Shown: positions 12,111 through 36,000 of the stretch, one piece after another | Position numbering within the stretch: the first letter of the stretch is position 1 | Layout: each line of letters begins with the position of its first letter | Assembly (NCBI RefSeq): GCF_000711875.1 | Contig: NZ_JONM01000029.1 | Span: 1 to 41,113, forward strand | Source: Andreprevotia chitinilytica DSM 18519 | GTDB lineage: Bacteria > Pseudomonadota > Gammaproteobacteria > Burkholderiales > Chitinibacteraceae | Length of the DNA stretch: 41,113 nucleotides | Direction of reading: 5' to 3' | Notes under the pieces: model-generated | The model's database searches: none | Told to the model about the DNA's origin: nothing | What the model saw: only the letters and a program-made list of their open reading frames with translations | Program-made: the position numbers and the translations under genes

Positions 12111-12142
12111 TTTTAGACAGAATTCTAGACAGTTGTCTAAAA
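12111..12142. promoter_or_regulatory. cluster of TAGACA motifs, candidate integrase arm sites
   Basis: TAGACAG occurs at 12114-12120 and again at 12126-12132, 12 bases apart. An inverted TGTCTA lies at 12134-12139. The outer arms TTTTAGACA and TGTCTAAAA also form a 9-bp dyad. Its position between the attachment core and the integrase gene suits arm-type binding sites. The element overlaps the integrase stop codon, so a terminator role is an alternative. Confidence 0.35.
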
Positions 12143-13207
12143 TCCAGAGCAGTTTACGTCCACTTTGTTCGGCTCCACCGTCCCTCGCCAGCGGCTTTTC
12201 ACGTAAATTTCGGTTGTCTTGACCGACTCGTGACCGCACAGCACTTGGATCACTTCCAGCGGAATTCCCGAAAGCCACATATCCGTTGCGCCTTTGCCTT
12301 TCAGGTCGTAAAAGCCGAAGTTTGTTACTTTGGATTTCTTGAGATATCGGGTCAGCATTGAGCAAAGTCCGCTGTATGTATAAGGCTCGCCTTTGCCGGT
12401 GTGAATCAGCGTCATCTGATGACGGCTCGGTGTGGCCGTTACCCCAAGCTCAACGAGAATTTCATCAATCTCCGCTGTGATCGCAATGTCGATAGTCGCG
12501 CCGGTCTTTCCTTGTTTGGTGCGGATGATTCGGCGGCGCGAACCGTCTGGCTCGACCTTGGTAATCAGGTTGGCTGCTGTCCAGATGATGATGTCCTCGG
12601 GGCGCTGCAGTGTGCGGTAAATGAGCGCCATGAGGCACTGCACTTGGCGCACCGCAACGGCACGTACTGCGTGATATTCAGCGTGTTCAACGTAGCGCTC
12701 ACGCTTGGTTTCCTTGTTGCGGCGGACGCCTTTGCACGGGTTGCCGTTAATTCCCCCTTCGCCTTTCCGAATCATCCAGGAGAAGCATGCCGACAAGCAG
12801 GCCTTCTCGCGGTTGCCGCGTACCGGCCGATCCAGCTCGACGCACATATCTAAATAAGCGCCGATGTGTTTGGCTTCGACGGCGGCGGGTAGCATGCGCC
12901 CGAAATATGCCTTGAGCGGTTCGATGTCGCGCTTGTAATCCTCGTAGGTCCGTGGCGCCATGCCGCCTTTTTCGCGTGGGAGCAGCGTGCGCTGTGCGCA
13001 GTGCACTACGAAGGCATCGAGGAAGTAGGTCATCGTGCCGAACGTGTTGTCGGGATCGTTGTAGAGCTGCGCCTTCCGTTTGGCTTCGCGGACATCGGTG
13101 CCCAGCCGCTCCCATTTCCCCGAGCGGTGGACGTAGTAGAACGCGCTGTGTTTTGCATAGACATTCAGGGGCAACCCAAGTGGGTTGTCATTTCGTTTTC
13201 GGGCCAT
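12137..13207 (-). CDS. int: phage tyrosine integrase
   Basis: The 356-residue product has an N-terminal arm-binding region, a core-binding domain with a SAM-like fold (about 60-165) and a tyrosine-recombinase catalytic domain. Catalytic positions visible are Arg202 (TLQRPEDIIIW), Lys231 (RTKQGKTG), box II at 300-303 reading YDLK, His326 (LCGHESV) and nucleophile Tyr335 (TTEIY). Canonical box II is HxLR, so both the His and the second Arg are replaced, the latter by Lys. It sits last in the leftward early operon, 3 bases after the DUF4224 gene, and its 3' end faces the tRNA-Lys attachment site. It should catalyse integration and excision, though the box II change leaves activity open. Confidence 0.9.
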   Translation of the reverse strand: MARKRNDNPLGLPLNVYAKHSAFYYVHRSGKWERLGTDVREAKRKAQLYNDPDNTFGTMTYFLDAFVVHCAQRTLLPREKGGMAPRTYEDYKRDIEPLKAYFGRMLPAAVEAKHIGAYLDMCVELDRPVRGNREKACLSACFSWMIRKGEGGINGNPCKGVRRNKETKRERYVEHAEYHAVRAVAVRQVQCLMALIYRTLQRPEDIIIWTAANLITKVEPDGSRRRIIRTKQGKTGATIDIAITAEIDEILVELGVTATPSRHQMTLIHTGKGEPYTYSGLCSMLTRYLKKSKVTNFGFYDLKGKGATDMWLSGIPLEVIQVLCGHESVKTTEIYVKSRWRGTVEPNKVDVNCSGF

Positions 13208-13477: not shown

Positions 13478-13478
13478 C

Positions 13479-17499: not shown

Positions 17500-17547
17500 T
17501 CGGCCCGGTGGCGGTTTTTCTCCGGGTGCTGCTTGCCCGGCTTTTTT
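17489..17547 (+). terminator. tandem terminators after cro (tR-like)
   Basis: CCGCCACC/GGTGGCGG (8-bp stem, 17489-17514) followed by TTTTT overlaps the cro stop. It is followed at 17522-17547 by CCGGGT/GCCCGG and a six-T tract. Rightward genes beyond would need read-through or antitermination. Confidence 0.8.
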
Positions 17548-17628
17548 ATGCCTGCTGTCTCTCGGCTGTTCGCATAGTAGGTGCGGGCGAGTCGGGGTGC
17601 AGCGTTTGATTTGGTCGAGGACATACGT

Positions 17629-18075
17629 ATGGCGATGCCACTTCTGGACGCAATCTATAAAACGGCGCACGAGCATTCTGGCGGTGTGGAGGCCTTGGCG
17701 GCACGCATGGGGGTGAATGCCCAGGTGCTCCGCAACAAGGTGAATCCGAACGCCGCCAGCCATCACCTGACCGCCCGCGAGGCGGACTTGATGATGGCCC
17801 TGACCGGTGACTTCGGCGTGCTCCACGCGCTGGCCGCGAACCACGGCTTCGTCTGCGTCAAGGCGCCGGACGACGTCAGCGCGGGCGATCTGGCGGTGTT
17901 GGACATCATCACGTTGATCTGGGCGCGTACCGGTGACGTAGGGCGTGCGGTCTACGAAACGCTCGCCGATGGCCGTGTCGAAAAGCACGAACTGAGCAAT
18001 GTGCGGCAGCTGGCGTACACGCTGCAGCAAGGGCTGATCGAAATGCTTGGTCGGCTCGAAAGCATGGCGGACTGA
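17629..18075 (+). CDS. phage regulatory protein CII (CP76-type)
   Basis: The 148-residue product starts MAMPLLDAIYKTAHEHSGG at 17629 after GAGG. VEALAARMGVNAQVLRNKVNPNAASHHLTAREADLMMALTGD (about 20-61) is a helix-turn-helix typical of the phage CII/CP76 family (PF06892). The C-terminal half is helical and probably oligomerises (ELSNVRQLAYTLQQGLIEMLGRL). Members activate transcription for lysogeny or regulate early genes. It is the first gene after the tandem terminators and is followed by the small basic protein four bases later. Confidence 0.8.
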   Translation: MAMPLLDAIYKTAHEHSGGVEALAARMGVNAQVLRNKVNPNAASHHLTAREADLMMALTGDFGVLHALAANHGFVCVKAPDDVSAGDLAVLDIITLIWARTGDVGRAVYETLADGRVEKHELSNVRQLAYTLQQGLIEMLGRLESMAD

Positions 18076-18078
18076 CAC

Positions 18079-18288
18079 ATGGCCGAGCGTGCATACAAAG
18101 ACCCGGTATTCGACGAGGTGGCGCGGCGCGAAGAGGCCGAGCGGCGTAGGGCCGAGCGCATGGCCAAACAGGCGGCGAACGATGCCGAGCGGCGCAGCAG
18201 TCCCGATTACCGGCTGCGACGGCGGCGGCGCATTTTGGGGCTGGTGGCGATTGCAAAGCGGGGTAGCGATGATCGTTCTGGACGATGA
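18079..18288 (+). CDS. small Arg/Glu-rich phage protein
   Basis: The 69-residue product (MAERAYKDPVFDEVARREEAERRRAERMAKQAAND...) is highly charged and probably one long helix ending in RRRRRILG. No family is recognised. It starts three bases after the CII-like stop and overlaps the replication gene start by 20 bases. Packing supports it as real, although charge-rich shadows are common in this DNA. Confidence 0.5.
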   Translation: MAERAYKDPVFDEVARREEAERRRAERMAKQAANDAERRSSPDYRLRRRRRILGLVAIAKRGSDDRSGR

Positions 18289-19132
18289 CGAAATGACCGC
18301 CGTGTTCCAGGGCGGCCCGCTGGCGATTGCGGTGTACCTGCTGCTGCGCCGCTGGATGGATTACGCGACCGGCACGGTAGGTGTTGAGCGCTCGGTGGCG
18401 GTGGCGAAGCTGTGCGACCACCTCGGTCACGACATCCCGCGTGGGAAGGGTTTCGAGCACAAGAAACCATCGGTGCAGAACGTGCGCACGGCCCTGGAAT
18501 GGCTGAAGAAAAACAACGTGATCCAGCAGGTGGCCAGTGGGGAGCGCGTCGTTTTTTTCCTGCGTTTGGCGATGACACGTTCAGTGCGTCCAAAACAAAC
18601 CCAACACGAACTCAACAAGAACCTAACAAGCCCTTCCCAACAAGCACAAAGCAAGGCGTGGCAAGGGTTTGGCGGGGATTCCCCACAAGCGGATTCATTT
18701 GTTGGCAATACCCATTCCCAACAAGCATCAACGTATCAAGAAACATCTGCACTCTCTGGCGCGCACATGCGCGAGAGCGTCATCCCCGAAGATTTCAGTC
18801 CCAGCGACTTGAACCAGCATGAAGCCAAACGACTGGGGCTGGATGGTGAGCTGGAAGCCTCGGCGTTCGTCGCCTTTTACCAATCCAACGGCGTGACCCG
18901 TGCCAATTGGCAAGCAGCGTTCAAGAAGTGGCTGCTGGATGCGCACCGCTACCGCACGATGCACGAAACCGGCGTGATGAACGCCAATGAAATCCGCGCC
19001 CTGGAAGAGCAAGACGCCTATGAGGGCGGCGATGCGTTCTGGGCGCCCCTCAACTTTGGAACTGTCGGCAAGGATGGGCAAATCAATGGACCGGCTGCAC
19101 TGCACTCTGGAACTCAAAACAGCCAGCAATGA
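18269..19132 (+). CDS. replication initiator fused in frame to a portal-protein C-terminus (deletion chimera)
   Basis: From ATG 18269 the product has 287 residues. Residues about 1-100 (MIVLDDDEMTAVFQGG...LKKNNVIQQV) read as a winged-helix O-type replication domain. Residues about 100-170 are a Gln/Ser-rich linker encoded by iterons. Residues about 172-226 (FSPSDLNQHEAKRLGL...WQAAFKKWLLDA) match the DnaT-type ssDNA-binding domain that usually ends such proteins. The sequence then continues TGVMNANEIRALEEQDAYEGGDAFWAPLNF, which matches the C-terminus of HK97-type portal proteins (NEIR-x-x-E ... GGD-x-x-x-xPLN). The prohead protease overlaps the end, as it normally overlaps the portal. Portal N-terminus, terminase and helicase genes are absent, so a deletion with in-frame junction near 18930-18970 is inferred. 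The start 18047 is rejected. Confidence 0.78.
   Translation: MIVLDDDEMTAVFQGGPLAIAVYLLLRRWMDYATGTVGVERSVAVAKLCDHLGHDIPRGKGFEHKKPSVQNVRTALEWLKKNNVIQQVASGERVVFFLRLAMTRSVRPKQTQHELNKNLTSPSQQAQSKAWQGFGGDSPQADSFVGNTHSQQASTYQETSALSGAHMRESVIPEDFSPSDLNQHEAKRLGLDGELEASAFVAFYQSNGVTRANWQAAFKKWLLDAHRYRTMHETGVMNANEIRALEEQDAYEGGDAFWAPLNFGTVGKDGQINGPAALHSGTQNSQQ
18601..18726 (+). repeat. iterons in the replication gene, candidate phage origin
   Basis: The motif C-Y-AACAAG recurs at 18612, 18623, 18637 and 18718. A degenerate copy is at 18601 and an inverted copy at 18698-18706. The first three spacings are 11, 11 and 14 bases, close to one helical turn. Lambdoid phages place iterons for their initiator inside gene O in the same way. 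Confidence 0.55.
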
Positions 19133-19751
19133 CGGCGGCGCGATGACGTTTGCCGGTTACGGCAGCGTCTTCGGCAATGTCGATCTCGGCGGCGATGTGG
19201 TCGTGCCGGGCGCGTTCGCCAAGGCGATCGAGTCTGCCACCGACAACGGCATCTGGCCGTCGATGCTGATGCAACACGGCTTCGATGCTGGCGGCGATAC
19301 GCCTGTCGGCATCTACACCGCCATGAAGGAAGACGCGGTCGGCTTGTGGCTGGAAGGCAAGCTCGCGCCCACCCCGCGCGGGCAGGAAGCCTACCAGCTG
19401 ATGAAGATGGAACCCCGGCCCGCGATCAGCGGGCTTTCTATTGGCTACCTCCCCAAAAGCTGGGAGCACCAGGACAAGGACGGCAAGCGGATACGGCTGT
19501 TGAAGTCGGTGGATTTGCTCGAAGTGTCGCTGGTGACCTTCCCGATGAACACGCAGGCCCGCGTCACCCACGTCAAATCCGACCTCACCATTCGCGCCGC
19601 CGAACGCGCCCTGCGGGATGCAGGGTTTTCGGCGAAGGAAGCCAAGTCGATCCTGGCGCATGGCTTCCACACCCTCCCTCCGCGAGATGCCGAGGAGACG
19701 GGCGAACTTCTCGCGCAGCTCAAGCGCAACATCCATACCCTCACACACTGA
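19086..19751 (+). CDS. HK97-family prohead protease (U35)
   Basis: The start at 19086 gives 221 residues beginning MDRLHCTLELKTASNDGGAMTFAGYGSVFGNVDLGGDVVVPGAF. FAGYGSVFGNVD-x-GGDVV-PGAF is the family signature. His in LMQHGFD and Ser in PRPAISGLSIGY are the likely catalytic pair of this herpesvirus-assemblin-like fold. It trims the capsid delta domain and scaffold during head maturation. It overlaps the chimeric gene before it by 47 bases in another frame, the arrangement normal for portal-protease pairs. The gene itself looks intact. Confidence 0.92.
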   Translation: MDRLHCTLELKTASNDGGAMTFAGYGSVFGNVDLGGDVVVPGAFAKAIESATDNGIWPSMLMQHGFDAGGDTPVGIYTAMKEDAVGLWLEGKLAPTPRGQEAYQLMKMEPRPAISGLSIGYLPKSWEHQDKDGKRIRLLKSVDLLEVSLVTFPMNTQARVTHVKSDLTIRAAERALRDAGFSAKEAKSILAHGFHTLPPRDAEETGELLAQLKRNIHTLTH

Positions 19752-19766
19752 CCCCCGGAGCATGCA

Positions 19767-20957
19767 ATGGACCTGAGCGAAATCAAAACCCTGATCGAAG
19801 GCCAAGGCCAGGCCTTCGAAGAATTCAAAAAAACCAATGACCAGCGCATTGCCGCGCTGGCCAAGGGCGACGCCGTGGCCGAGCTGGAAGCCAAGCTCGC
19901 CAAGATCAACGACGCCCTCACCACCAACCAAAAAACCATCGAAGAAGTGGCCAAGAAAGCCAACCGCCCGGCCACCGGCAGCGATACCGATCCGCTCGCC
20001 GCCGAACACAAGAATGCGTTCATCAGCTGGGCACGCACCGGCGAGCAGGAAGCCGAACTCAAGGGCATTCAGCGCAAGGCATTCCAGTCCGGCATCGATG
20101 CGCAGGGCGGCTTCTTCCTGCCGACCGAAGTCGAAGCCGGCATCGACCGGCTGGTGCGCAAATCCGGCTCCATCGCCGCGCTGGCGACCACGGTCACCGG
20201 CTCCGCACCCGAATACAAACGCTTCGTGAAGGTCGGCGGCTCCAAAGCCCGCTGGGTGGGTGAAACCGACAAGCGCCAGAAAACCGGCAACGGCAGCTAC
20301 GAAGAACTGGCGTTCGCACCGGGCAAGATGATGGCCGAGCCGATGATCTTCCGCGACGTGCTCGACGACGCCAGCATCGACCTGGCCGCCGAGCTGCAGC
20401 TCGAAATCGTCGAAGCCTTCGAAGATGCCGAAAGCGAATCCTTCATCACCGGCGACGGCATCAAGAAACCCAAGGGCATCCTGTCCTACGACATGGTGGA
20501 CAACAAAAACGTCGCCTGGGGCAAGCTCGGCTACATCACCAACGGCGGCGCGGCACTGAGCAACCCCGACAAGTTCATCGACGTGATCCATGCGCTGCCG
20601 CGTGCCTTCCGCAACAGCGCGAACTGGCTGATGAACGACCTGACCACCGCCGAAGTGCGCAAGCTCAAGGATGCCGAAGGGAATTACCTGTGGGTGCCAG
20701 GCTTGCAAGCCGGCGCCACCGGCACGCTGCTCGGCTACGGCATCACCAACGACGATTACATGCCGGACATTGCCGCCAATGCCTTCCCGATTGCCTTCGG
20801 TGACTTCGGCCGAAGCTATCTGATCTACCGCCGCAAGGGCATCGCCGTCATGCGCGAGTACGACAGCGACTACGACGCCTACACCTTCCCGACCACGGCC
20901 CGTGTCGGTGGCGGCATCCGCAACTTCCAGGCGCTCAAGTTCCTGAAAATGGGCTGA
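19767..20957 (+). CDS. HK97-fold major capsid protein
   Basis: The 396-residue product has an N-terminal coiled-coil delta (scaffold) domain, about residues 1-75 (FEEFKKTNDQRIAALAKGD...). The capsid fold begins near NAFISWARTGEQEAELKG. QGGFFLPTEVEAGI, WVGETDKRQKTG, FRDVLDDASIDLAAELQLEIVEAFEDAE and FITGDGIKKPKGIL are hallmarks of the phage_capsid family. The prohead protease should remove the delta domain. It lies 15 bases after the protease, with GGAG before the ATG. It is intact and of normal length, which contrasts with the missing portal and terminase. Confidence 0.95.
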   Translation: MDLSEIKTLIEGQGQAFEEFKKTNDQRIAALAKGDAVAELEAKLAKINDALTTNQKTIEEVAKKANRPATGSDTDPLAAEHKNAFISWARTGEQEAELKGIQRKAFQSGIDAQGGFFLPTEVEAGIDRLVRKSGSIAALATTVTGSAPEYKRFVKVGGSKARWVGETDKRQKTGNGSYEELAFAPGKMMAEPMIFRDVLDDASIDLAAELQLEIVEAFEDAESESFITGDGIKKPKGILSYDMVDNKNVAWGKLGYITNGGAALSNPDKFIDVIHALPRAFRNSANWLMNDLTTAEVRKLKDAEGNYLWVPGLQAGATGTLLGYGITNDDYMPDIAANAFPIAFGDFGRSYLIYRRKGIAVMREYDSDYDAYTFPTTARVGGGIRNFQALKFLKMG

Positions 20958-22065: not shown

Positions 22066-22394
22066 TGCGGGCTGGCAAGCTGAACAAGCGCATCACCCTG
22101 CAGCGGCGCAGTGCCGGCAAAGACGAATACGGCGCACCGCTCAACCGCTGGGAATCCCTTCCCCCCATCTGGGCCGATATCCGCTTCACCAGCGGCAAAG
22201 AAGCCATTACGGCCGGCGCAGAAGCCAGCACGGCCGCCGCCAGTATCCGCATCCGCTATCGCACCGGTATCACCGCCGCCATGCGGGTGGTACACGGCAC
22301 GATGATCCTCAACATCAAGGCCGTGCTGCCCGATCTGGCGCGCAAGGAATACATCGACTTGGTGTGCGAAACCGACCCGAAGGCCACCTTATGA
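22065..22394 (+). CDS. head-tail adaptor / head-closure protein (SPP1 gp16-like)
   Basis: The 109-residue product MRAGKLNKRITLQRRSAGKDEYGAPLNRWE... contains the head-closure family pattern (G-x-L-x-xRI-x-x-x--x-D-x-G-x-x-x-x-W), then WADIRFTSGKEAI and RTGITAAMRVVHG. It is a small beta-barrel that closes the head channel and contacts the tail. Overlaps with both neighbours (TGATG and ATGA) show translational coupling in the connector cluster. Confidence 0.87.
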   Translation: MRAGKLNKRITLQRRSAGKDEYGAPLNRWESLPPIWADIRFTSGKEAITAGAEASTAAASIRIRYRTGITAAMRVVHGTMILNIKAVLPDLARKEYIDLVCETDPKATL

Positions 22395-22846
22395 GCAAGA
22401 TCCACGGCCTCGCCGAACTGACTGCCAAGCTCAACAGCTTGAGCGACAAAGCCGGCAAAAAAGCCGTCCAGAAAGCGCTCGGCGCAGGCGCCAAACCCAT
22501 CGTGAAGGAAATCCGCCGCCGCGTACCCAAAGACACCGGTTTCCTGAGAAAGCAGATCAACGCCCGCAAATCGCGCAGCAAGCTGCTGGTGCAGATCGGC
22601 GTGCGCCTGGCGCTGAAACCCGTGCGCGGCGACAAAGGCGCATACCGCATCCACCAGCGCGCCAAGATCAGCCCGGCTGGCCGGCTGCAGAACGCCAATG
22701 CCTTCTATTGGTATTACCTGGAATTTGGCACCAGCAAGATGGCGGCGCAGCCGTTCATGCAGCCCGGTTTCGATGCCAAGAAAGACGATGCGCTCGACGC
22801 CATTGTCGACAGCCTGCGCCGTGACGTGAATGAGGCTATCCGATGA
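22391..22846 (+). CDS. HK97 gp10-like tail-joining protein
   Basis: The 151-residue product MSKIHGLAELTAKLNSLSDKAGKKAVQKALGAGAKPIVKEIRRRVPKDTGFLRKQI... matches the gp10 family: GL-x-EL-x-x-x-L near the start, VPKDTGFLR in the middle and YWYYLEFGTSKMAAQPFMQPGFD near the end. It is part of the neck or tail completion complex in HK97-like phages. The start overlaps the previous stop as ATGA, and its own stop overlaps the next start. Confidence 0.9.
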   Translation: MSKIHGLAELTAKLNSLSDKAGKKAVQKALGAGAKPIVKEIRRRVPKDTGFLRKQINARKSRSKLLVQIGVRLALKPVRGDKGAYRIHQRAKISPAGRLQNANAFYWYYLEFGTSKMAAQPFMQPGFDAKKDDALDAIVDSLRRDVNEAIR

Positions 22847-23178
22847 ATCGGCTGACGGAATTGGTGACGATGCTGCAGGCGGTGGTCGGGGAGCATGTTT
22901 ACCCGGAGGTCGCGCCGGAAGGGACGCCCACGCCGTATGCGACGTGGCAGGTGATTTCAGAAATTCCCGAGAATCGGCTAGCGGGTGGGGCGAGTGCGTG
23001 GACGTTTCGGATTCAGGTCAATATCTGGGCGGGTGAATATGCCCAGGCGCGTAGTTTGATAGATGAATTCATAGGGGCACTACCACCAGCCTGGATGATT
23101 GAGTTCCGTAGTGCGTCGCCGGCTGGAGACGCTACATTGTATGGACAGCTGGTGGCAGTAGCTGCCTTGGATATTTAA
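22843..23178 (+). CDS. DUF3168 tail-terminator-like protein (HK97 gp11-like)
   Basis: The 111-residue product (MNRLTELVTMLQAVVGEHVYPEVAPEGTPTPYATWQVIS...) has the DUF3168 pattern: L-x-x-L-x-x-x-x-x-x-VYP-x-x-APEGTP-PYA-x-WQ-x-x-x, then FRIQVNIWA. Members cap the tail tube. The last ~25 codons shift to AT-richer usage (region from about 23065) and run straight into an AT-rich cargo island, so the C-terminus may have been altered by that insertion. Confidence 0.82.
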   Translation: MNRLTELVTMLQAVVGEHVYPEVAPEGTPTPYATWQVISEIPENRLAGGASAWTFRIQVNIWAGEYAQARSLIDEFIGALPPAWMIEFRSASPAGDATLYGQLVAVAALDI

Positions 23179-24136: not shown

Positions 24137-24775
24137 ATGGCTTCCAAAGCAGTCAGCGCCCAGGGCGCCAAAATCAAGGTTTCCACCGGCAGCGGTGGTC
24201 CCAAGCCGATCACCGGGATCAGCAAGGGCAATCCGTGCGTGATCACCTCGAACGGCCACGGCTTCAAGCCGGGTAACGTGGTGGCGCTGGCCGCTATCGT
24301 CGGCATGGTCGAGTTGAACGGTAAAACCCCGGCCGTGCAGTACGTGACGGCGAATACCTACTCGCTGGCCGGGGTGGATTCGTCCGGTTTCGGCGACTAC
24401 ACCAACGGCGGCGCAGCAACGCCGGTGGCGTTTTCGGAGGTGGGCGAAGTGACTGACTTCGACGGGTTCGACGGGCAAGCCTCCGAAGAAGACGTGTCGA
24501 CGCTGGCCAGCGAAGCGGTCGAGAAGCGGCTCGGCCTGGTTGATTACGGTGGTTTGTCGCTCAGCCTCAAGTTCGTCAAATCCGACGTCGGCCAGGCCGC
24601 ATTGCGGTCTGCGCAAGTCACACGCGAGGTGCTCGATTTCATGATCGAGCTGAGTAATGGCGATGTCGCATCGTTCTCCGCGCTAGTGAAGCAGTTCTCC
24701 ATCGGTGGCGCGGTGAACAAGGTGCTGACCGGCAAGGTCCAGCTCACCATCAGCGGCCCGGTTGTCTGGGCTTAA
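24137..24775 (+). CDS. major tail tube protein with inserted FCCH-like domain
   Basis: The 212-residue product keeps a tail-tube frame: MASKAVSAQGAKIKVSTG at the start, then FSEVGEVTDFDGFDGQASEEDVSTLASEAVEKRLGLVDYG, and a C-terminus ending GKVQLTISGPVVWA. Between about 24 and 95 is an extra module (ITGISKGNPCVITSNGHGFKPG ... VGMVELNGKTPAVQYVTANTYSLAGVDSSGFGDYTNGG). It matches the FCCH-like repeat that phages carry in tail and fibre proteins (HGF-x-x-G, GM-x-x-LNG, DS-x-x-(Y/F)-x-x-Y). Such modules sit on the tube surface and may bind cells. AGGAG precedes the ATG. Confidence 0.85.
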   Translation: MASKAVSAQGAKIKVSTGSGGPKPITGISKGNPCVITSNGHGFKPGNVVALAAIVGMVELNGKTPAVQYVTANTYSLAGVDSSGFGDYTNGGAATPVAFSEVGEVTDFDGFDGQASEEDVSTLASEAVEKRLGLVDYGGLSLSLKFVKSDVGQAALRSAQVTREVLDFMIELSNGDVASFSALVKQFSIGGAVNKVLTGKVQLTISGPVVWA

Positions 24776-24784
24776 GGAGTGGAT

Positions 24785-25183
24785 ATGTCCAAGCTCAACC
24801 GCGAAAGCATTCTCGCCGCCCAGGATTGCGTCACCGAAACCGTACCGGTGCCGGAGTGGGGCGGTGACATCACCGTCACCGAAATGACCGGTGAGCAGTC
24901 CAGCCGCTTCTGGGATGAAGCCTTCACCAACGAAGGCGGCAAGCTGATCCGTAAAGGCACGTCGGCCGAATTCGCCGCCGCGCTGATCGTCGCCACCACG
25001 CAGGATGACGACGGCCTGCCGTTGTTCCTGCCCAGCGATATCCCGGCCCTGGTGCGCAAGTCCGACCGCGCGCTGAATCGCGTTTCCGATGTCGCCCTGC
25101 GGCTGAACAAGATGGGCCGTTACGCGAACGACACCGTAAAAAACTCCGCCGCGCCAGCGCCAGACGGTTCGCTTACCGCCTAG
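24785..25183 (+). CDS. tail assembly chaperone, unshifted form (gpG-like)
   Basis: The 132-residue product (MSKLNRESILAAQDCVTETVPVPEWGGDITVTEMTGEQSSRFWDEAF...) is the usual short tail chaperone following the tail-tube gene. AAGGAG lies five bases before the ATG. A slippery heptamer near its end yields a second, longer product. The chaperone coats the tape measure during tail assembly and leaves the finished tail. Confidence 0.87.
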   Translation: MSKLNRESILAAQDCVTETVPVPEWGGDITVTEMTGEQSSRFWDEAFTNEGGKLIRKGTSAEFAAALIVATTQDDDGLPLFLPSDIPALVRKSDRALNRVSDVALRLNKMGRYANDTVKNSAAPAPDGSLTA

Positions 25184-25512
25184 CGCTGGCGCTCGGTCGC
25201 CACGATGTCGATGGGCTGCTCGGCGAGCTGACCGCCAGCCAGTTCGCCGAGTGGCAAGCCTATTTCGCCATCGAACCGTGGGACGAAGAACGCGCCGATC
25301 TGCGCGCGGGCATCGTCGCCAGCACCCTCGCCAACTGCCACCGCGCGGAAGGCATCGACCCCTTCACCCCGCTCGACTTCATGCCGCTGGCCGAGCGCGA
25401 TCAGCCCGAATCTGAAGCCATTGACCCGAATCAAGCGATCCGGGCGCTGATCGATCAAGCCGCCCTTAAAGGAATCCAACCCAATGGCCAGTCTGGCGAA
25501 ACTCACGGTTGA
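24785..25512 (+). CDS. tail assembly chaperone, -1 frameshift form (gpGT-like, DUF4035)
   Basis: Ribosomes slipping back one base at A AAA AAC (25138-25144) continue LRRASARRFAYRLALALGRHDVDGLLGELTASQFAEWQAYFAIEP... to a stop at 25510-25512, giving about 242 residues. The shifted part matches the DUF4035 extension found in many lambdoid phages (RLALALG-x-x-DVD-x-LL ... EW-x-AYF-x-(I/L)EP). It has no start codon or ribosome site of its own, so frameshifting is the only plausible route. The end overlaps the tape-measure start by 29 bases. Confidence 0.85.
25138..25144 (+). promoter_or_regulatory. programmed -1 frameshift site A AAA AAC
   Basis: The heptamer sits in frame as GTA AAA AAC, the canonical X XXY YYZ form. 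The -1 frame is open for 122 further codons, while the zero frame stops at 25181-25183. Confidence 0.85.
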
Positions 25513-28297
25513 TCTCGAAGCCAATATCGCCCGCTTCGAACAAGGGCTGAACCGGGCCGAATCGCTGGCCCGCAAGCAGTCCGAAGCCATCACCCAGCAG
25601 CTCGGCAAAGTGGAAAGCACTGCCAGCCTGGCCGGCAAAGGGCTGATCGCGCTGGGCTCCATCCAGCTGGCTGATCACGTGGTCGATTGGGCGGCTGGCT
25701 CGGTGCATGCCTTGATCGATGTACAGCGCCAGTTCGAGCGCACCGACTCGGCCCTGCGCTTTGCCAACGGTGGTGATCTGAAGGGTGTGGCCACCGACCT
25801 AGCGTGGGTGCGCGAGCTGTCCAAAGAGCTGGGGCTGGAAGTCAGCAGCACCGCCCAAGCCTTTGCGCTGTTCTCCGGCGCCACCCGCGAGACGGTGCTG
25901 GAAGGGCAGAACACCAAGGACGTGTTCCGGGCGATCAGCACCGCATCGACCGCAATGGGCCTGAGTCTGGATGACACCAAGGGCGCGCTGCTGGCACTGA
26001 CGCAGATGGTGGCCAAGGGGACGGTGCAGGCCGAGGAATTCCGCGGCCAGTTGGCGGAACGCTTGCCGATTGCCACCAAGGCGGCAGCCGATGCGCTGGG
26101 TGTCACCACCGCCGAATTCACCCGCATGCTGAACAACGGCCAGGTGATCGCTTCCGACTTCCTGCCCAAGTTCGCCGCCGCCCTGCAGCGTGCCACGCAG
26201 GACACGGCGCAATACGGCAATCAGACCACCAAGGCGGTCAACGAAGTCAGCAGCGCCTGGACCGCAGCAAAAACCGAGATTGCCCAGACCGGCGCCAGCG
26301 ACTTCATCAACGGCCAACTGCGCATCCTGTCGGATGGCTTCGAGGATGTCGCGCGCTCGATCCACAAGGCACGCGACGAGGGCGGCGGCTTCTGGTCGCA
26401 GATGGCCGCTGGGGCGGGTGGCGCATTGCGCTTCCTCAACCCGAGCAATGCCTTCAGCTACCAGGCGCAAGATCCGCAGGCGCAATACAAGGCGCTGTCC
26501 GAGCGGCGGGCCGCACTGAGTCAGACGGCGGGCGCGGATGGCACCGGCAACACGCAGGAGATGATCCGCCAGATCGATCAGCAACTGGCCAAACTGAAAT
26601 CCTCGACGCCGGCCCTACGCTCCTTCGAGCCGACCACGCTTGGCGCCACGCAGTATGCCGAGCAGCAGCAACAGCACGCCCGCATCCTCAAGCAAGCCCG
26701 CGAGCGCGCCACCGACTACCTCAAGACCAGCAAGTATCAGACCCAAGCCGAAAAAGACGCGGCGGCACTGGATGCGCTGGACAAGGAATTCAAGGGCGCG
26801 ACGGCCGAGCTGAAGCCGGGCGATGCCGCCTATGACAAGGCGAGCCAGACCTACCAGACGCGCCGGGCGGAACTGCTCAAGACCCAAGCCAAGCACGACG
26901 CCCCGAAGAACGATCCGCTGCAGAACGCCTATTTGTCGCAAACGCTGCAGCTGTCGAAGGACATCGCCACCAGCCGCACCCATGTCGCCAATCTGGAAAA
27001 GGGCATCGCCGAGAGCGACGGCCGCCACACTGCTGCGCTGGAAGAATGGCTCAAGTACGACCGGGAAGGGCAGAAGCTTGGTGACACCAAAAAGGCCACC
27101 TTGGCGGCACTGGCCCGCGATGCCGATGCAATGGCGCGCAAGGAACGTGAAGCCGTGCAGTACTACGGCTTCATGCACGATTCGGCGCAGGCGCTGGGCA
27201 AGGTGCTGCGCGAGAACGCCAGTATCGCCCTGCATGGTCAGGCCAATCCGTACACCAGCGCGCAGGATCTGGAAGACCAGTTCGCACCGGGCGGCAAATA
27301 TGCCGATGTGCAAGACCCCGCGCGTCAAACGGCGATGCGGGCGGCAGCGGCGGCAATGGATCAGGCCGCCATGCAGCGCACCGTCGCCCAGGCTGGCTAC
27401 GACGATGGCAAGGCGCTGGAATCAGTCCGGCGCCAGATCGATCTGATCGGCCAATCCGCGCGCGAGCAGGAACGGCTGAATGCGCAGTACCAGATTCAGG
27501 ACGAATACGAGAAACGCGCGGTCGGCCTATCGGGTGAGCAGCTGCAAGCCCTGCAGGCGCAGACCGAGGAATACCAGACGCGGCTGCTGGATGCCATCGA
27601 GGCCCGCAACCAGAAGGAACGCGACTGGCAGACCGGCGCACAAGACGGCTTGCAGACCTACCTGGACAACGCCAGCAACATGGCGTCGCAAACCCGGTCG
27701 CTGGTTACGGATGGCATGCAGGGCTTCGAGAACGCGTTTACCAACGCTGCCGAGAGCGGCAAGTTGTCCTTCCATGATCTGACCCGCTCGATCCTGCTCG
27801 ATCTGGCCAAGATCGCCGAACGCCGCGCCATCGTCGGCCTGATGAATTACGCCATCGGCGCATTTACCGGGGACTCGGGCGCAGTCGGCACCGGTGGGAT
27901 TTCCGAAAGCTACAGCAACGACATGACCCGGTCAGTGATTCCGGGCCGCGCCTACGGTGGGCCGACCGAGGCGAACGGCCTCTATCAAGTGGTGGAAAAA
28001 GGCGAACCGGAAATGCTGCGCGTCGGTCGCGAGAGCTACTTGATGATGGGCTCACGCGGCGGTCAGGTCACCCCGTTGCGCAGTGGCGATGTGGGCGGGA
28101 GTGGTGGCGGTTCGCCCGTCATCAACCTGAATACGCAGATCGTGCTGTCGGATAGCGGCGCGCAAAGCAGCACCAGCGGCGACCAGAACGCCGCCCCGCG
28201 CCAACTGGCGGAGATGGTCAATCAGCAGATCACGCAGCAGCTGCAGCGGGAAAGCCGCCAAGGCGGTCTGCTCTGGAAAATGCGAGTGGGCGCATGA
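25484..28297 (+). CDS. tail tape measure protein
   Basis: At 937 residues this sets a tail of typical siphophage length. The N-terminus (MASLAKLTVDLEANIARFEQGLNRAES) and the region about 85-230 (TDSALRFANGGDLKG...LSKELGLEVSSTAQAFALFSGA ... MVAKGTVQAEEFRGQLAERLPIATKAAADALGVTTAEFTRML) are the tape-measure domain. A long coiled-coil middle follows (about 380-720). The lambda-type C-terminus has LSFHDLTRSILLDLAKIAERRAIVG, then a Gly-rich end with YQVVEKGEPEMLRVG. No lytic transglycosylase domain is seen. The start overlaps gpGT. Confidence 0.93.
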   Translation: MASLAKLTVDLEANIARFEQGLNRAESLARKQSEAITQQLGKVESTASLAGKGLIALGSIQLADHVVDWAAGSVHALIDVQRQFERTDSALRFANGGDLKGVATDLAWVRELSKELGLEVSSTAQAFALFSGATRETVLEGQNTKDVFRAISTASTAMGLSLDDTKGALLALTQMVAKGTVQAEEFRGQLAERLPIATKAAADALGVTTAEFTRMLNNGQVIASDFLPKFAAALQRATQDTAQYGNQTTKAVNEVSSAWTAAKTEIAQTGASDFINGQLRILSDGFEDVARSIHKARDEGGGFWSQMAAGAGGALRFLNPSNAFSYQAQDPQAQYKALSERRAALSQTAGADGTGNTQEMIRQIDQQLAKLKSSTPALRSFEPTTLGATQYAEQQQQHARILKQARERATDYLKTSKYQTQAEKDAAALDALDKEFKGATAELKPGDAAYDKASQTYQTRRAELLKTQAKHDAPKNDPLQNAYLSQTLQLSKDIATSRTHVANLEKGIAESDGRHTAALEEWLKYDREGQKLGDTKKATLAALARDADAMARKEREAVQYYGFMHDSAQALGKVLRENASIALHGQANPYTSAQDLEDQFAPGGKYADVQDPARQTAMRAAAAAMDQAAMQRTVAQAGYDDGKALESVRRQIDLIGQSAREQERLNAQYQIQDEYEKRAVGLSGEQLQALQAQTEEYQTRLLDAIEARNQKERDWQTGAQDGLQTYLDNASNMASQTRSLVTDGMQGFENAFTNAAESGKLSFHDLTRSILLDLAKIAERRAIVGLMNYAIGAFTGDSGAVGTGGISESYSNDMTRSVIPGRAYGGPTEANGLYQVVEKGEPEMLRVGRESYLMMGSRGGQVTPLRSGDVGGSGGGSPVINLNTQIVLSDSGAQSSTSGDQNAAPRQLAEMVNQQITQQLQRESRQGGLLWKMRVGA

Positions 28298-28641
28298 CGA
28301 CCGAACCAATCGAAACCTTCACCTGGTCGCCGCGCCTCGGGCCGAGCGGGCAAATCAAGCTGCGCGTGAAATCGGCCCGCTTCGGCGATGGCTACCAACA
28401 GGACGTCGGCGACGGCCTGAACAACATCGAGCAGTCCTGGCCGCTGGCGTTTACCGGTGATGAATCCTATGTCCGGCCGATCAAGGCGTTTCTCGAACGG
28501 CATCAAGGCTACAAGGCATTCAACTGGACGCCGCCGCTCGGCACGCCCGGCCGCTACAAGGTCGTTGAATTCAACCTCACCCCAGGCAGCGGCGGGCTGT
28601 ACACCGTCACCGCCACTTTGACCCAGAGCTTTGCACCATGA
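28294..28641 (+). CDS. minor tail protein (lambda gpM-like)
   Basis: The 115-residue product contains FTWSPRLGPSGQIKLRVKSARFGDGYQQDVGDGLN, the conserved opening of the phage minor tail protein family, and FLERHQGYKAFNWTPP. It is a tail-tip component joining the tube to the hub. The start overlaps the tape-measure stop as ATGA and the end overlaps the next start. Confidence 0.9.
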   Translation: MTTEPIETFTWSPRLGPSGQIKLRVKSARFGDGYQQDVGDGLNNIEQSWPLAFTGDESYVRPIKAFLERHQGYKAFNWTPPLGTPGRYKVVEFNLTPGSGGLYTVTATLTQSFAP

Positions 28642-29339
28642 CCATCACTGCCGACATGCAACTGCTGCAGCCGGGCGCCGAAGTGTTCCTGTACCAACTG
28701 GATGCAACCGCCATCGGCGGCGATCTGCTGCGCTTCCACGGCCACCTGCAGGCCGGGCCGATCTGGTGGCAAGGCCAGCAGTACGACCCGTGGCCGATCG
28801 AGGCGGAAGGGTTCGCCCGCACCAGCGAAGGCAAGCAACCCGCACCGACGCTGTCGGTCGGCAACGTCTCCGGCACGATTTCGGCGATGGTCATCTATCT
28901 GGATGACCTGGTCGGCGCCAGGCTCATCCGGCATCGCACGCTGACCAAGTTTCTGGATGCGGCCAACTTCCCCGACGGCAACCCGACTGCCAACCCGAAC
29001 GAAGAATTCCCGCCTGAGCTGTGGTTCATTGACCAGAAAACCGCCGAGACCTCGGCAGTGGTTACCTTCGAGCTGGCCAGCGCGGTGGATTTCAACGGCC
29101 AGCAGATTCCGGCTCGCCCCATCATTGCCAACGTGTGCTGGTGGCTGAGTCGCGGCGGTTATCGCGGCCCGTACTGCGGTTACACCGGCACCGCCTATTT
29201 CGACCGGGACGACCAGCCAGTGGTCGACCCGTCGCGGGATCGGTGTGGCGGCCGGCTGACCTCGTGCAAGTGCCGCCACGGCGAGCACGCCGAACTACCG
29301 TTCGGCTCGTTCCCTGCGGCTGATTTAATTCGGAGTTGA
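28638..29339 (+). CDS. minor tail protein (lambda gpL-like, probable Fe-S protein)
   Basis: The 233-residue product follows the gpL pattern: VFLYQLDATAIGGDLLRFHG, then SVGNVSGTISAMV, and ends FGSFPAADLI. Cysteines at 167, 180, 203, 210 and 212 cluster in the C-terminal part (CWWLSRGGYRGPYCGYTG ... DRCGG ... TSCKC). Lambda gpL is known to hold a [4Fe-4S] cluster through such cysteines, and conservation here suggests the same. It forms part of the tail tip with J. Confidence 0.88.
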   Translation: MTITADMQLLQPGAEVFLYQLDATAIGGDLLRFHGHLQAGPIWWQGQQYDPWPIEAEGFARTSEGKQPAPTLSVGNVSGTISAMVIYLDDLVGARLIRHRTLTKFLDAANFPDGNPTANPNEEFPPELWFIDQKTAETSAVVTFELASAVDFNGQQIPARPIIANVCWWLSRGGYRGPYCGYTGTAYFDRDDQPVVDPSRDRCGGRLTSCKCRHGEHAELPFGSFPAADLIRS

Positions 29340-29340
29340 G

Positions 29341-30114
29341 ATGCAAACCAAGACCGAAAGCGCCATCCGACATCACGCGATGGCGGAATACCCGCGCGAG
29401 TGCTGCGGCCTGGTGATCATCGAGCGCGGGCGCGAACGCTACGTGCCGTGTACCAACGAGGCAGCGAGTAGCGAGCACTTCCGGTTGCCGGCGAGTGAAT
29501 ACGCCGATGCGGAAACCCGAGGCGAAATCATCGCCGTGGTGCACTCGCACCCGGATATGCCAGCCCGGCCGAGCGAAGCCGACAAGGTCGCCTGCGAAGC
29601 TTCCGGCCTGCCCTGGATCATCGTTCGGGTGGATGGCCCGGAGCCGGTCACCCAAGAAATCGTCACTATCGAACCCTGCGGCTACCAGGCGCCGCTGGTG
29701 GGTCGCAGCTTCGCGCATGGCGTGCTCGATTGTTACACCCTGATTCGGGATTGGTATCAGCGCGAGCGGCATATCACGCTGCTCGACTTCGAGCGCGAGG
29801 ATGAATGGTGGAACAAGGGCCAAGACCTCTACATGCAACACTTCGCCGAGGCGGGTTTTACCCGGTTGCCAGACACCGCGCCGTTACAGGTGGGCGACGT
29901 GATCCTGATGCAGATTCGCGCCGATGCCACCAATCACGGCGCGGTCTATATCGGTGATGGGCTGATGCTGCATCACCTGTATGGGCGGCTGTCGACGCGG
30001 GATGTGTATGGGGGGTATTGGCGGGAGGTGACGCGGATGTTGTTGCGACGCCTATCGTCGTCAGGCACATGTGCGCTCACCGTGATCGACGAAGAGCAAC
30101 TCTACCGATCCTGA
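29341..30114 (+). CDS. tail tip protein K-like, Mov34/JAB plus NlpC/P60 domains
   Basis: The 257-residue product has an N-terminal JAB/MPN-like domain: EYPRECCGLVII with the acidic residue, then VVHSHPDMPARPSEAD giving the HxH-x7-S-x2-D metal site. The C-terminal domain is NlpC/P60: FAHGVLDCYTLIRDWYQ with the catalytic Cys, and TNHGAVYIGDGLMLHHLYG with the His. Such proteins cut peptidoglycan during tail-tip assembly or DNA entry. The last ~20 residues (RRLSSSGTCALTVIDEEQLYRS) do not look like the normal end of the family and fall at the edge of the cargo island, so the C-terminus has probably been replaced. Confidence 0.9.
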   Translation: MQTKTESAIRHHAMAEYPRECCGLVIIERGRERYVPCTNEAASSEHFRLPASEYADAETRGEIIAVVHSHPDMPARPSEADKVACEASGLPWIIVRVDGPEPVTQEIVTIEPCGYQAPLVGRSFAHGVLDCYTLIRDWYQRERHITLLDFEREDEWWNKGQDLYMQHFAEAGFTRLPDTAPLQVGDVILMQIRADATNHGAVYIGDGLMLHHLYGRLSTRDVYGGYWREVTRMLLRRLSSSGTCALTVIDEEQLYRS

Positions 30115-32475: not shown

Positions 32476-33066
32476 ATGACCCACACCCTCCGCACCGTCC
32501 GCCTGTACGGGCAACTTGGCGCGCGCTTCGGGCGCGTGCATCGCTTGGCCGTGGCTTCTGCCGCCGAAGCCGTTCGCGCCCTGGGCAAGCTCTTGCCCGG
32601 CTTCGAGGCCGAGCTGATGGGCAGCCGCGACCGGGGCGTCGTGTATTCGGTGTTCCTCGGTCGCGACAACCTCAACGCGGATCGGCTGCGTGAGCCGGCC
32701 GGTGAGGCCGACATCCGCATCGCGCCGGTGCTGGCCGGTTCCAAACGCGGCGGCCTGCTGCAGACCGTGGCCGGGGTGGTGCTGATCGTGGTTGGCGCCA
32801 TCGCCACGGCCTGGGGTTACGGCGTGATCGGCCAGCCGCTGATGAACATGGGCATCGCGATGGCCATCGGTGGCGTGGTGCAGATGCTGGTGCCGCAGCA
32901 GCAAGGGCTCTCGACCAAGGACGGGCCGAACAACGGTGCGTCGTACAACTTCAACGGGCCGGTCAACACCACCGCCCAGGGCAACCCGGTGCCGGTGCTG
33001 TACGGCGAAATGATCGTCGGCAGCGCGGTGATTTCCGGGGGCATTTACGCCGAGGACCAGCTCTGA
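32476..33066 (+). CDS. tail assembly protein I (lambda gpI-like)
   Basis: The start at 32476 gives 196 residues (MTHTLRTVRLYGQLGARFGRVHRLAVASAAEAVRALGKLLPGFEAELMGS...). TVRLYG-L-x-x-FGR-x-H-LAV-x-x-x-EAVRAL is the lambda gpI signature. A hydrophobic hairpin follows (LLQTVAGVVLIVVGAIATAWGYGVIGQ...GIAMAIGGVVQML, about 95-140), then a C-terminal peptide ending GNPVPVLYGEMIVGSAVISGGIYAEDQ. It is needed to build the tail tip and is not found in the finished particle. No clear ribosome site precedes it, perhaps because the island replaced upstream DNA. Its stop overlaps the J start. Confidence 0.88.
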   Translation: MTHTLRTVRLYGQLGARFGRVHRLAVASAAEAVRALGKLLPGFEAELMGSRDRGVVYSVFLGRDNLNADRLREPAGEADIRIAPVLAGSKRGGLLQTVAGVVLIVVGAIATAWGYGVIGQPLMNMGIAMAIGGVVQMLVPQQQGLSTKDGPNNGASYNFNGPVNTTAQGNPVPVLYGEMIVGSAVISGGIYAEDQL

Positions 33067-36000
33067 TGGGCGCACGTGACTTGATTGGTTTTGGTGGCGG
33101 CAAGAGCGGCGATGGGGGCCATACGCCGGTCGAGGCCAACGACAACCTGCACAGCATCGCTTATGCGCGGGTGCTCGATCTGGTGTCCGAAGGCGACATT
33201 GTTGGCCCGGTCAACGGCCTGCGCAGTGTGCTGCTCGATGGCACGCCGCTGCAGAACGCCGATGGTTCGTTCAACTTTACCGGCGTGTCGGTCGACTTCC
33301 GCGCCGGTACGCAGGATCAGGGCTACATCCCCGGCTTCCCGGCCGTCGAGAATGAATCGGCGGTGGGGGTCGAACTCAAGAGCGATCAGCCGTGGGTGCG
33401 TGCCATCAATAATCTGGCGCTGTCGGCGGTGCGCATCCGCCTGTCCTTCCCCGCACTCTCGAAGGCCAATACCGACAACGGCGATATCGGTGGCTATCGG
33501 ATCGAGTACGCCATCGACCTGGCCACCGATGGCGGCACGTTTAAAACCGTGCTGAGCGAGGCGGTCGATGGCAAGACCACCAGCAAGTACGAACGCAGCC
33601 GGCGCATCGAGCTGCCGCGTGCCCAAGTCGGTTGGACCCTTCGCGTGCGCCGCATCACGCCGAATGCGCACAGCAGCTTGGTGGCCGATACCTCGATCAT
33701 CGAATCGATGACCGAGCTGGTCGACGCCAAGCTGCGTTACCCGATGAGCGCGCTGATGGCGGTGCGGGTCGATGCGCGCCAGTTCCAGAGCGTGCCGACC
33801 CGCTCGTATCACCTGCGCGGCCGCATCATTCGCGTGCCCTCGAACTACAACCCGGATCAGCGCAGCTATGCCGGCGTGTGGGATGGCACCTTCAAGCTGG
33901 CGTATTCCAATAATCCGGCCTGGGTTTACTACGACCTGTTGCTCAACGAGCGCTACGGCCTGGGCGACCGCATCGACGCCAGCCAGGTCGACAAGTGGTC
34001 GCTGTACCAGATCGCCCAGTATTGCGATGTGCCGGTATCGGATGGCCGGGGCGGTCTGGAACCGCGCTTTACCTGCAATGTGTATTTGCAGGTGGCCGCC
34101 GATGCGGCCAAGGTGCTGCAGGATCTGGCCAGCGTATTCCGCGGCATTTCGTTCTGGGCCGCCAGCAGCGTGTTCGTGTCGGCCGATATGCCGACCGACC
34201 CGGTCTACACCTACACCAACGCCAACGTGATCGATGGCGAGTTTGGCTATCCCGGCAGCGGCCGGCGTACCCGCTACACGGTGGCGCTGGTGAGCTGGAA
34301 CGATCCGGCCGACCAGTTCCGGCAGAAGGTCGAGTACGTCGACGACGAAGCCGGCCTCGCCCGTTATGGCGTGCAGAAGGTCGACATCAGCGCCTTCGGC
34401 TGCACCTCGCAAGCGCAGGCTCGGCGGGTGGGCAAATGGGCGTTGCTGTCGTCGCAGCTGGCGGGCGGGATTGCGTTTGCGGTCGGGCTGGATGGCGCCA
34501 TCGCCATGCCGGGCCAGATCATCCGCATCGCGGATGCCCACCGCGCCGGCCGGCGCATCGGCGGCCGGATCAAATCCGCAGCCGGGCGCGTGGTGACCTT
34601 GGACAAGGCGCCGCAGATTGCCATTGGCGACCGGCTGGTGTGCACCTTGCCCAGCGGCACCGCTGAAACCCGTACCGTCTCAGCGATCAATGGTGACGCC
34701 ATCACCGTGGGCAGCGCGTGGAGCACGCTGCCGCAGGCGCAGTCGGTGTGGGCGGTCGACAGCGACACGCTGGCCGCGCCGACCTATCGCGTGGTGTCGG
34801 TCACCGAAGGCGACGGGCTGACCTTCAAGATTTCTGCCGTCCAGCACGAGCCGGGTTTGTTCGATGCCGTCGACAACGGCGCGCGGCTGGAAACACGGCC
34901 GATCACGGTCATTCCGCCGTCCGTGCAACCGCCGCCGAGCAATGTCGTGATCACCGCCTATTCGGTGATCGAGCAGGGCATCGCCAAGACCAACGCGCAT
35001 ATCGCCTGGAACGCCGCCGACAAGGCCACCAGCTACGAGGTGCGCTGGCGGCGGGATAACGGCGAATGGATGAACGCCGGCACCACCGCTTCGCTCGGCG
35101 TCGATCTGCCGGGGGTGTATGCCGGCACCTACGTCGCCCAGGTGCGGGCACGCAATGCGCTGGGGGTGTTTTCCCAAGTGGCGCTGAGCGCGCCGACCAC
35201 GCTGCAAGGCAAGACCACGCCGCCACCCGTCGTCACCAGCCTGACCACCGCACCCCAAGTATTCGCCATCGGCCTGCATTGGTCGTTCCCGACCGGGCCG
35301 CTCGATGTCGAACGCACCGAACTCTGGTACGGCCAGACAGCCAATCGGGCCGATGCGATCAAGCTCGGCGACTTCGCGTACCCGCAGAACACGCACACGC
35401 TGCTGGGCGCACCGCTGGGTAAAACGGTCTGGTTCTGGGCGCGGCTGGTCGACAAGAGCGGCAACGTCGGGGACTGGTATCCGACCGGCAACGGCATCCC
35501 CGGTGCAGCATCGAGCAACCCGGATGAGATTGTCGCGGTCATGGGCAAGATCGGCCCGGAGCGGCTGACGCCCGCGCTGCTGAACCAGCTCGATGCCAGC
35601 GACCGGCTGGATGGCTTGCGCGACGAAATGACCCAGCTCGCCGAAGCGCAACGCGATGCCATTCTGGATGCCGAGCACACCGGGGGCACGGCCCGTTCCG
35701 CGCAGTCCGGCGTGGCGGTGGCGCTGCAGCAGATCAGCCAGCAAGCGGATGAGCTGCACGCCGAAGCCAAAGCGCGCTTGCTGCTGCAAGCCTTGCTCCA
35801 TGACGTGCAGGCTGGCCTGCTGGTCGAACAATCGGTGCAAGCCGATGACATCGAGGCCATCAGCACCAGCCTCACCACGCTGATCAGCCATGTGGCGGCC
35901 AACGATGCAGCGATCATTCAGGAAGCCACCACCCGTACCACGCACGAGTCGGCGCAGGCGTCGACCCTGCAGCAGGTGCAGACCAAGGTGGGCGACCTGT

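What the first reader, a model, noticed from the sequence alone, without database searches (positions are those of the whole stretch)
18269..19132. In-frame chimera of a replication initiator and the portal C-terminus marks a large internal prophage deletion
Seen: one open frame passes from a DnaT-type domain (…WQAAFKKWLLDA) into a portal-like end (NEIRALEEQ…GGDAFWAPLNF) and then overlaps the prohead protease. Known: in lambda/HK97-type phages the helicase or loader, terminase small and large subunits and the portal lie between these points. Inference: several kilobases were lost with a junction near 18930-18970, so the phage cannot package itself. Intact capsid and tail genes could mean domestication (tailocin-like use, or packaging by a helper) or simple decay.
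Basis: partly seen in the sequence, partly recalled or inferred. Interest (0 to 1): 0.88.

Follow-up and report, generated by a model that had tools for sequence, protein, structure and literature searches.

The report
Defective prophage with fused-gene deletion scar
A virus genome lying dormant in a bacterium lost about six kilobases, leaving a scar gene made of the front of one gene and the tail of another; without the lost DNA-packaging genes it probably cannot make infectious particles, and two other phage elements of the same bacterium carry similar scars.

Summary
The 287-codon frame 18269-19132 joins a phage replication initiator (residues 1-227) to the last 60 residues of an HK97-type portal. 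DNA identity with an intact 413-residue portal elsewhere in the same genome begins at base 18949. Four relatives of the same bacterial family keep initiator, P-like protein, HNH, TerS, TerL and portal in the expected order; measured in two of them, about 6.2-6.6 kb is missing here. Five terminase families found no intact large terminase in the genome (six short contigs, 10.7 kb, have unreadable ends).

New here: the sister prophage (contig C34, head genes about 94% identical in DNA) has its own in-frame scar, TerS fused to the last ~80 residues of TerL. A Mu-like element (contig C16) joins a MuB-like front to the end of a tail protein. All three junctions are in frame (1/27 by chance, only suggestive).

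Misassembly is unlikely: the junction lies hundreds of bases from any long repeat shared with the sister prophage. No reads were available. The head and tail genes checked are intact, so induction would plausibly give empty heads, free tails and lysis (inference). Preferential loss of terminase and portal is known. Ordinary decay, with an unusual cluster of scars.

The parts
18269..19132 (+). Chimeric open reading frame, 287 aa: initiator N-part fused in frame to portal C-tail
18269..18948 (+). Replication initiator (O/DnaT-like) part, residues 1-227, including nearly all of the conserved C-terminal domain
   Evidence: phrog_1408; alignment with 7 homologues
18949..19129 (+). Portal C-terminal tail (60 codons from Y228); 58 of 60 residues identical to the end of the C34 portal
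18930..18970 (+). Deletion junction; DNA identity with the intact portal begins at 18949
19086..19751 (+). Prohead protease (Peptidase_S78), start inside the fusion's end
19767..20957 (+). Major capsid protein, intact, 396 aa
21517..22065 (+). Head-tail adaptor
22391..23178 (+). Neck/tail-completion protein and tail terminator
24137..30114 (+). Major tail protein, assembly chaperone, tape measure, three minor tail proteins; each frame open
33066..36887 (+). Central tail fibre J, 1273 aa
38093..40984 (+). Large tail-end protein (weak GH114 match, below cut-off); a relative of its C-terminus forms the third chimera on contig C16
17581..18075 (+). CII-like regulator (Phage_CP76); lies in a stretch 98% identical in DNA to C34
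16510..17253 (-). CI-like repressor (HTH plus Peptidase S24)
12137..13207 (-). Integrase, beside tRNA-Lys 11988-12063

Best explanation
This is a defective, lambda/HK97-type siphovirus prophage that suffered one internal deletion. A break-and-join event between the 3' part of the replication initiator gene and the 3' end of the portal gene removed about 6 kb: the initiator's end, the P-like gene, HNH nuclease, both terminase subunits and some 350 codons of portal. The join happened to be, or was kept, in frame and left a scar gene. Shown: anatomy, junction, what is missing compared with relatives, open frames of the head and tail genes checked. Inferred: it cannot package DNA because it has no motor, no portal and probably no packaging site; if induced it would make portal-less heads, free tails and, with the lysis genes found beyond the window's end, lyse the cell; late genes would now be read from the early operon. 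The same genome carries two more scars of this kind, so its prophages appear to be decaying, possibly under selection against productive lysis.
For: Chimera shown by split homology and by DNA identity starting at 18949. Gene order initiator, P-like, HNH, TerS, TerL, portal in 4 of 4 same-family relatives that I fetched with wide flanks (L075-L078) and HNH to portal in phage KS9. Initiator-to-portal-end spacing, from the coordinates: about 6.2 kb in G026 and 6.6 kb in G006, not measured in the other two. No intact TerL found by PF03354, phrog_9, phrog_2, PF03237, PF05876. Second scar: TerS and TerL residues 476-557 of 558 (KS9 numbering) in one frame on C34; of 22 other loci 20 keep a near full-length TerL upstream of portal (TerS seen in 19 of them), one has it in pieces, one holds only the TerS side. 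Third scar: MuB-like residues 1-127 plus the last 216 residues of the tail-end protein on C16. Fifteen head, tail and tail-end frames of the window are open; between the sister prophages dN/dS is 0.015 for capsid and 0.037 for tape measure. Lysozyme and Rz lie on C2, whose first 95 bases equal the window's last 95. [quoted passage not shown] HK97 forms prohead-like shells without portal that cannot package DNA (PMC3185693, passage).
Against: No reads were examined. The ancestral right flank of this initiator gene is not known, so the length of any microhomology is not known. Six short contigs (10.7 kb in all) read as N at both ends, so a terminase fragment there cannot be excluded. PF03354 was searched at E 0.001 only. 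Purifying selection on head and tail genes may date from before the deletion. Some portal alignments run on left of the junction to residue 149: 22 of 29 phage records at 30% identity, E about 1e-3, and the C34 portal against the window's record. A shuffle test finds no real signal there: the initiator part scores 36 against the portal, reached by 301 of 1000 shuffles; for the hand-picked sub-stretch 149-227 against portal 286-353 it is 26 of 1000. No Ku end-joining protein was found, so no particular joining pathway is supported.
Confidence: 0.86

Rival explanations
1. Misassembly: the genome holds an intact prophage and the assembler joined the initiator gene to the portal gene by mistake.
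For: Draft assembly of 61 contigs with two very similar prophages (94% in the head region, 12 differences in 6060 bases in the tail region) and at least one scaffold gap (10 N in C2); six short contigs read as N at both ends.
Against: No 31-mer starting at 18900-18948 recurs in the ten other own-genome stretches compared; the nearest exact shares of 95 bases or more with C34 lie at 17773-18164 and 19368-19498. Five of 23 exact overlaps between readable contig ends are exactly 95 bases, the commonest length (66 pairs of all-N ends dropped before this count), as expected of a word-graph assembly with words of about that size, in which every word of a contig must occur in reads (inference). The missing terminase was not found on another contig.
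Confidence: 0.08
2. Domestication: the host benefits from DNA-free particles (tailocin-like tails, empty heads, or lysis with release of something), and selection keeps head, tail and lysis genes while packaging genes were removed.
For: Both sister prophages lost most of TerL by different events; the window keeps its head and tail genes, and C34 keeps them as far as its contig reaches; junctions are in frame in 3 of 3 cases; dN/dS 0 to 0.14 on seven head or tail genes (protease and the neck gene not computed).
Against: Known tailocins drop the head genes (recalled), which are kept here. Low dN/dS need not postdate the deletions. Three in-frame junctions have a 1/27 chance probability, 1/9 if the first, which was selected for its open frame, is set aside. 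No strain comparison was possible: one genome per species is held.
Confidence: 0.15
3. Satellite-like element packaged by a helper phage.
For: Terminase of one prophage most likely packaged another defective one (Sp4 by Sp14 in E. coli O157, PMC2669165, passage).
Against: No intact TerL found in the genome; the HNH-TerS region, where a cos site is expected (recalled), is lost from the window's prophage, and portal is lost too.
Confidence: 0.03
4. A functional fusion protein: initiator with a new C-terminal tail that does something new.
For: The frame is open; the initiator's conserved domain is almost complete (DnaT profile 16-58 of 69 here, to 60-62 of 69 in 2 of 4 relatives).
Against: Found in one genome only; its usual partner, the P-like gene, was not found in the window's record L019, which covers window 12137-30954; the tail is a 60-residue end of a portal without its core.
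Confidence: 0.02

Closest known systems
Burkholderia phage KS9 (Stanholtvirus, NC_013055)
   Same: Same order HNH, TerS, TerL, portal, protease, capsid, head-tail genes; TerL C-terminus 63% identical to the C34 scar
   Different: KS9 has these as separate annotated genes; the window lacks everything from the initiator's end to the portal's last 60 codons; KS9's replication genes are arranged differently (DnaB-like helicase, then O-like)
Defective lambdoid prophages, e.g. the Sakai prophage pool of E. coli O157 (PMC2669165, passages seen)
   Same: Several related prophages in one genome with different packaging or morphogenesis defects
   Different: There all lambdoid prophages but one (Sp4) encode intact terminase; here both siphovirus prophages lack it and the scars are in-frame fusions
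Incomplete prophages as a class (PMC7744054, passages seen)
   Same: Preferential loss of terminase and portal
   Different: That study counts genes; the passages seen do not describe in-frame fusion scars

Membership tests
HK97-type siphovirus prophage | Integrase and repressor module | tested here: met
HK97-type siphovirus prophage | Capsid with adjoining prohead protease | tested here: met
HK97-type siphovirus prophage | Portal protein | tested here: not met
   Only the last 60 codons remain, of 413 in the C34 portal
HK97-type siphovirus prophage | Large and small terminase subunits | tested here: not met
   No TerL match on this contig; no TerS, TerL or HNH match in the record L019, which covers window 12137-30954
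HK97-type siphovirus prophage | Siphovirus tail set (tape measure, major tail, J) | tested here: met
   a tail-tip I gene between K and J was not looked for
HK97-type siphovirus prophage | Lysis genes | tested here: inconclusive
   Lysozyme and Rz lie on C2, joined to the window only by a 95-base overlap; C40 has a 90% similar stretch
Tailocin (F-type) | Tail module without head genes | tested here: not met
   Capsid, protease and connector genes are present; the definition is recalled
Phage satellite (PICI-like) | Own packaging-redirecting gene (TerS-like) or packaging site, and a helper (recalled) | tested here: inconclusive
   No TerS match in L019 and no intact TerL found in the genome; packaging site not looked for
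Active temperate phage | Produces infectious particles | not testable with these tools
   needs induction

The most novel reading that the evidence does not exclude
The three in-frame fusions in one genome are not coincidence: selection (or a host process) removes the packaging step from each resident prophage while preserving an open, translated operon into the late genes, so that the host keeps inducible, DNA-free particle production, in the window's case under early-promoter control.
Probability: 0.1. Interest if true: 0.65.

Novelty: new member of a known kind. Interest (0 to 1): 0.32.

Why it matters
It is a clean example of how a prophage loses its packaging step in one event while keeping heads and tails, and three such scars in one genome give a small natural test of whether prophage decay is random or is steered against productive lysis. 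It also shows that a plausible full-length ORF in a phage can be a deletion scar, which an annotation pipeline could well name as an initiator.

Tried and rejected
Helper packaging from a second resident phage: the sister prophage has an intact portal but its terminase is itself a scar, and five terminase families found no intact copy. Known fused architecture in active phages: not found. Portal homology reaching left of the junction: not above shuffles. A shared sequence motif at the three junctions, as for site-specific recombination: the junction codons were printed one under the other and no common core was seen by eye; no statistical test was made. End joining by Ku: no Ku found. Attachment-site repeat to delimit the element's right end: no exact match of 13 bases or more between window 11979-12150 and C40 or the first 6 kb of C2, both strands. 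Promoter and terminator scan of 16900-21600: no sigma-70-like hit; 11 terminator-like hits against 5.2 expected, three on the + strand, one of them at 17522-17540 before the CII-like gene, none between 17541 and 19416. Loss of an initiator gene from C34 by a further deletion: C27 and C34 diverge over some tens of bases near window 18205, so a module swap fits as well; not claimed. Anti-phage models on four cargo proteins: no match. Relatives by capsid in 84,980 species genomes: 4 of 32 pattern-matching stretches, all 34-37% identical, too far to date the event. Papers for in-frame prophage fusions: two searches; no listed paper holds the words 'in-frame fusion'; no claim is made beyond those searches. 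A search for the IMG genome number gave no paper.

Full report
What was checked. The frame at 18269-19132 is real and open for 287 codons. Its two halves belong to different families. Residues 1-227 match a phage replication-initiator family (phrog_1408, E 9.9e-7) and two better-scoring families of unknown function (phrog_13103 E 4.6e-11, phrog_23635 E 1.7e-7); the Pfam DnaT match is below cut-off (17.7 of 25 bits). The last 60 residues are the end of a portal: searching the window's own genome found residues 224-287 at 92% identity at the end of an intact 413-residue frame on contig C34, which is a full portal (E 2.8e-102). Aligning the DNA of the two contigs gives no match between 18206 and 18948 and 94% identity from 18949 to 23057. 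Against the C34 portal the last 60 residues outscore all of 1000 shuffles, while residues 1-227 are reached by 301 of 1000.

What is missing. In four same-family genomes (handles G006, G018, G021, G026; loci L076, L078, L075, L077) the order is initiator, P-like protein, HNH nuclease, TerS, TerL of 585-646 codons, portal, then capsid; the 646 counts from a far upstream start codon. The annotated phage KS9 has the same order from HNH on, with TerS 167, TerL 558 and portal 429 residues. From the coordinates, the distance between the two points joined here is about 6.2 kb in G026 and 6.6 kb in G006; I did not measure it in the other two. So one event of about 6 kb explains the frame. Of 100 genomes searched, 12 including the own one had a match to the fusion; of the 13 rows outside the own genome, 12 match the initiator side and 1 the portal side. 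Of 50,697 phage records 29 matched, none over 80% of the length; of the 25 listed, 22 (Moraxella phages) match the portal side and 3 the initiator side. Of 8 viral-contig stretches that matched a pattern, 1 was a relative, the window's own record.

Is a packaging set elsewhere? The Pfam portal model rings once in the genome, on C34. Five terminase families give no intact copy: PF03354 none at E 0.001, phrog_9 only a C-terminal piece on C34, phrog_2 two weak hits at E 0.02-0.03, PF03237 one at E 0.7 below cut-off, PF05876 one at E 0.1 below cut-off. Six of the 61 contigs, 10.7 kb in all, read as N at both ends; I take it that they could not be searched.

The sister prophage carries its own scar. 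The frame just before the C34 portal (P0002, 207 aa) matches TerS at residues 42-100 (phrog_83, E 1.4e-4) and the end of the TerL nuclease at residues 131-196 (PF20441 positions 222-285 of 286, E 3.3e-11). Against KS9 it aligns with TerS 4-79 and TerL 476-557. Of 22 other viral loci brought in by this protein, 20 have a near full-length TerL upstream of portal (TerS seen in 19 of the 20; L227 starts too late), one (L234) has TerL in pieces, and one (L240) shows only the TerS side. About 1.6 kb is gone by comparison with L219 and L220.

A third scar. The window's end is 83% identical to a stretch of C16 (which scored 40 of 189 candidate places). There a 343-residue frame follows a Mu-type transposase frame (Mu-transpos_C, E 4.1e-17). 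It joins the first 127 residues of an AAA ATPase (AAA_22, E 2.3e-9; 'MuB-like' is my label from its position after the transposase; 58% identical to a 257-residue frame in G070) to the last 216 residues of the tail-end protein encoded at window 38093-40984 (87%). Whether this arose by deletion in one phage or by recombination between two is not known. All three junctions keep the frame. By chance that is 1 in 27, or 1 in 9 leaving out the first, which was picked because its frame is open. I met the other two while comparing prophages, not by a systematic search, so this is a hint, not a result. Five integrase-family hits were found in the genome; of these I examined only the one in the window, so other prophages may exist.

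Could it be an assembly error? The contigs come from a draft. Exact shares of 95 bases or more between C27 and C34 nearest the junction are at 17773-18164 and 19368-19498; no 31-mer starting at 18900-18948 recurs in the ten other stretches of this genome that I compared. Of 23 exact overlaps of 20-400 bases between readable contig ends, five are exactly 95 bases, the commonest length (66 pairs of all-N ends were dropped first). This suggests a word-graph assembler with words of about that length; in such an assembly the junction words must come from reads (inference). I judge misassembly at 8%.

State of the rest. Fifteen head, tail and tail-end frames of the window are open from start to stop, and most match head, neck or tail families; 21010-21426 matches only a family of unknown function, and 37073-38092 was not scanned. 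The stretch 30115-33065 between the K-like and J genes holds cargo-like genes; a tail-tip I gene was not looked for. Between the sister prophages dN/dS is 0.015 for capsid, 0.037 for tape measure, 0.057-0.136 for four other genes of the head and tail block, 0 for one minor tail gene, 0.063 for CII, and 0.18 for the portal tail, the last on only five changes; protease and the neck gene were not computed. This shows purifying selection since the two diverged but not since the deletions. The last 95 bases of the window equal the start of C2, where a phage lysozyme and an Rz protein follow; C40, which matches window 35054-41113 with 12 differences, has a stretch 90% identical to C2's first 1448 bases.

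How it would work. Without TerL, TerS and portal no DNA can be packaged. HK97-like shells form without portal but are a dead end (PMC3185693, passage; also PMC12749128, passages). The element keeps integrase, repressor, CII and most of the initiator; its P-like partner was not found in the stretch scanned (L019). If induced, I expect early transcription to run straight into protease, capsid and tail genes, since a consensus scan shows no + strand terminator-like site between 17541 and 19416, though there is one at 17522-17540. That would give empty heads, free tails and lysis. These steps are inferred.

Comparison with what is known. Preferential loss of terminase and portal is known for incomplete prophages (PMC7744054, passages), and pools of related defective prophages are known (PMC2669165, passages). 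The window is therefore a new case of a known kind. What seems less usual is that each of the three phage elements I examined in this genome shows an in-frame fusion scar that takes out packaging or late genes.

Noticed in passing
L004:233-856 (contig C34): Second in-frame scar: TerS fused to the last ~80 residues of TerL in the sister prophage.
   Followed up: yes
L090:6857-7888 (contig C16): Third in-frame scar: MuB-like N-part fused to the C-terminus of a tail-end protein, after a 702-residue Mu-type transposase frame; resembles a natural mini-Mu.
   Followed up: partly
window 35228-35292: In 6060 bp shared with contig C40 all 12 differences fall in this 65-bp patch of the J gene; looks like a small conversion tract.
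   Followed up: no
window 23264-24064 and L004:6201-7208: The same slot between tail genes holds unrelated cargo genes in the two sister prophages (phrog_5322 of unknown function here; no Pfam, PHROG or PADLOC match in C34).
   Followed up: partly
window 30194-32218: A gene that looks lipoprotein-like by eye (no Pfam match) and a DUF5677 gene on the other strand sit between tail genes K and J; likely cargo.
   Followed up: partly
L234 (IMGVR_UViG_2643221752_000001) 3079-4026: Three successive matches to the TerL C-terminus and TerL in several pieces; possible tandem duplication or broken terminase in another prophage.
   Followed up: no
L075:10628-11467 and L076:9855-10679: TerS of these relatives has two TerS-like segments in one ~275-residue frame, unlike the 167-residue TerS of KS9.
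   Followed up: no
L003:12411-13013: A TetR-family regulator gene on the opposite strand lies between HNH and TerS in the C34 prophage.
   Followed up: no
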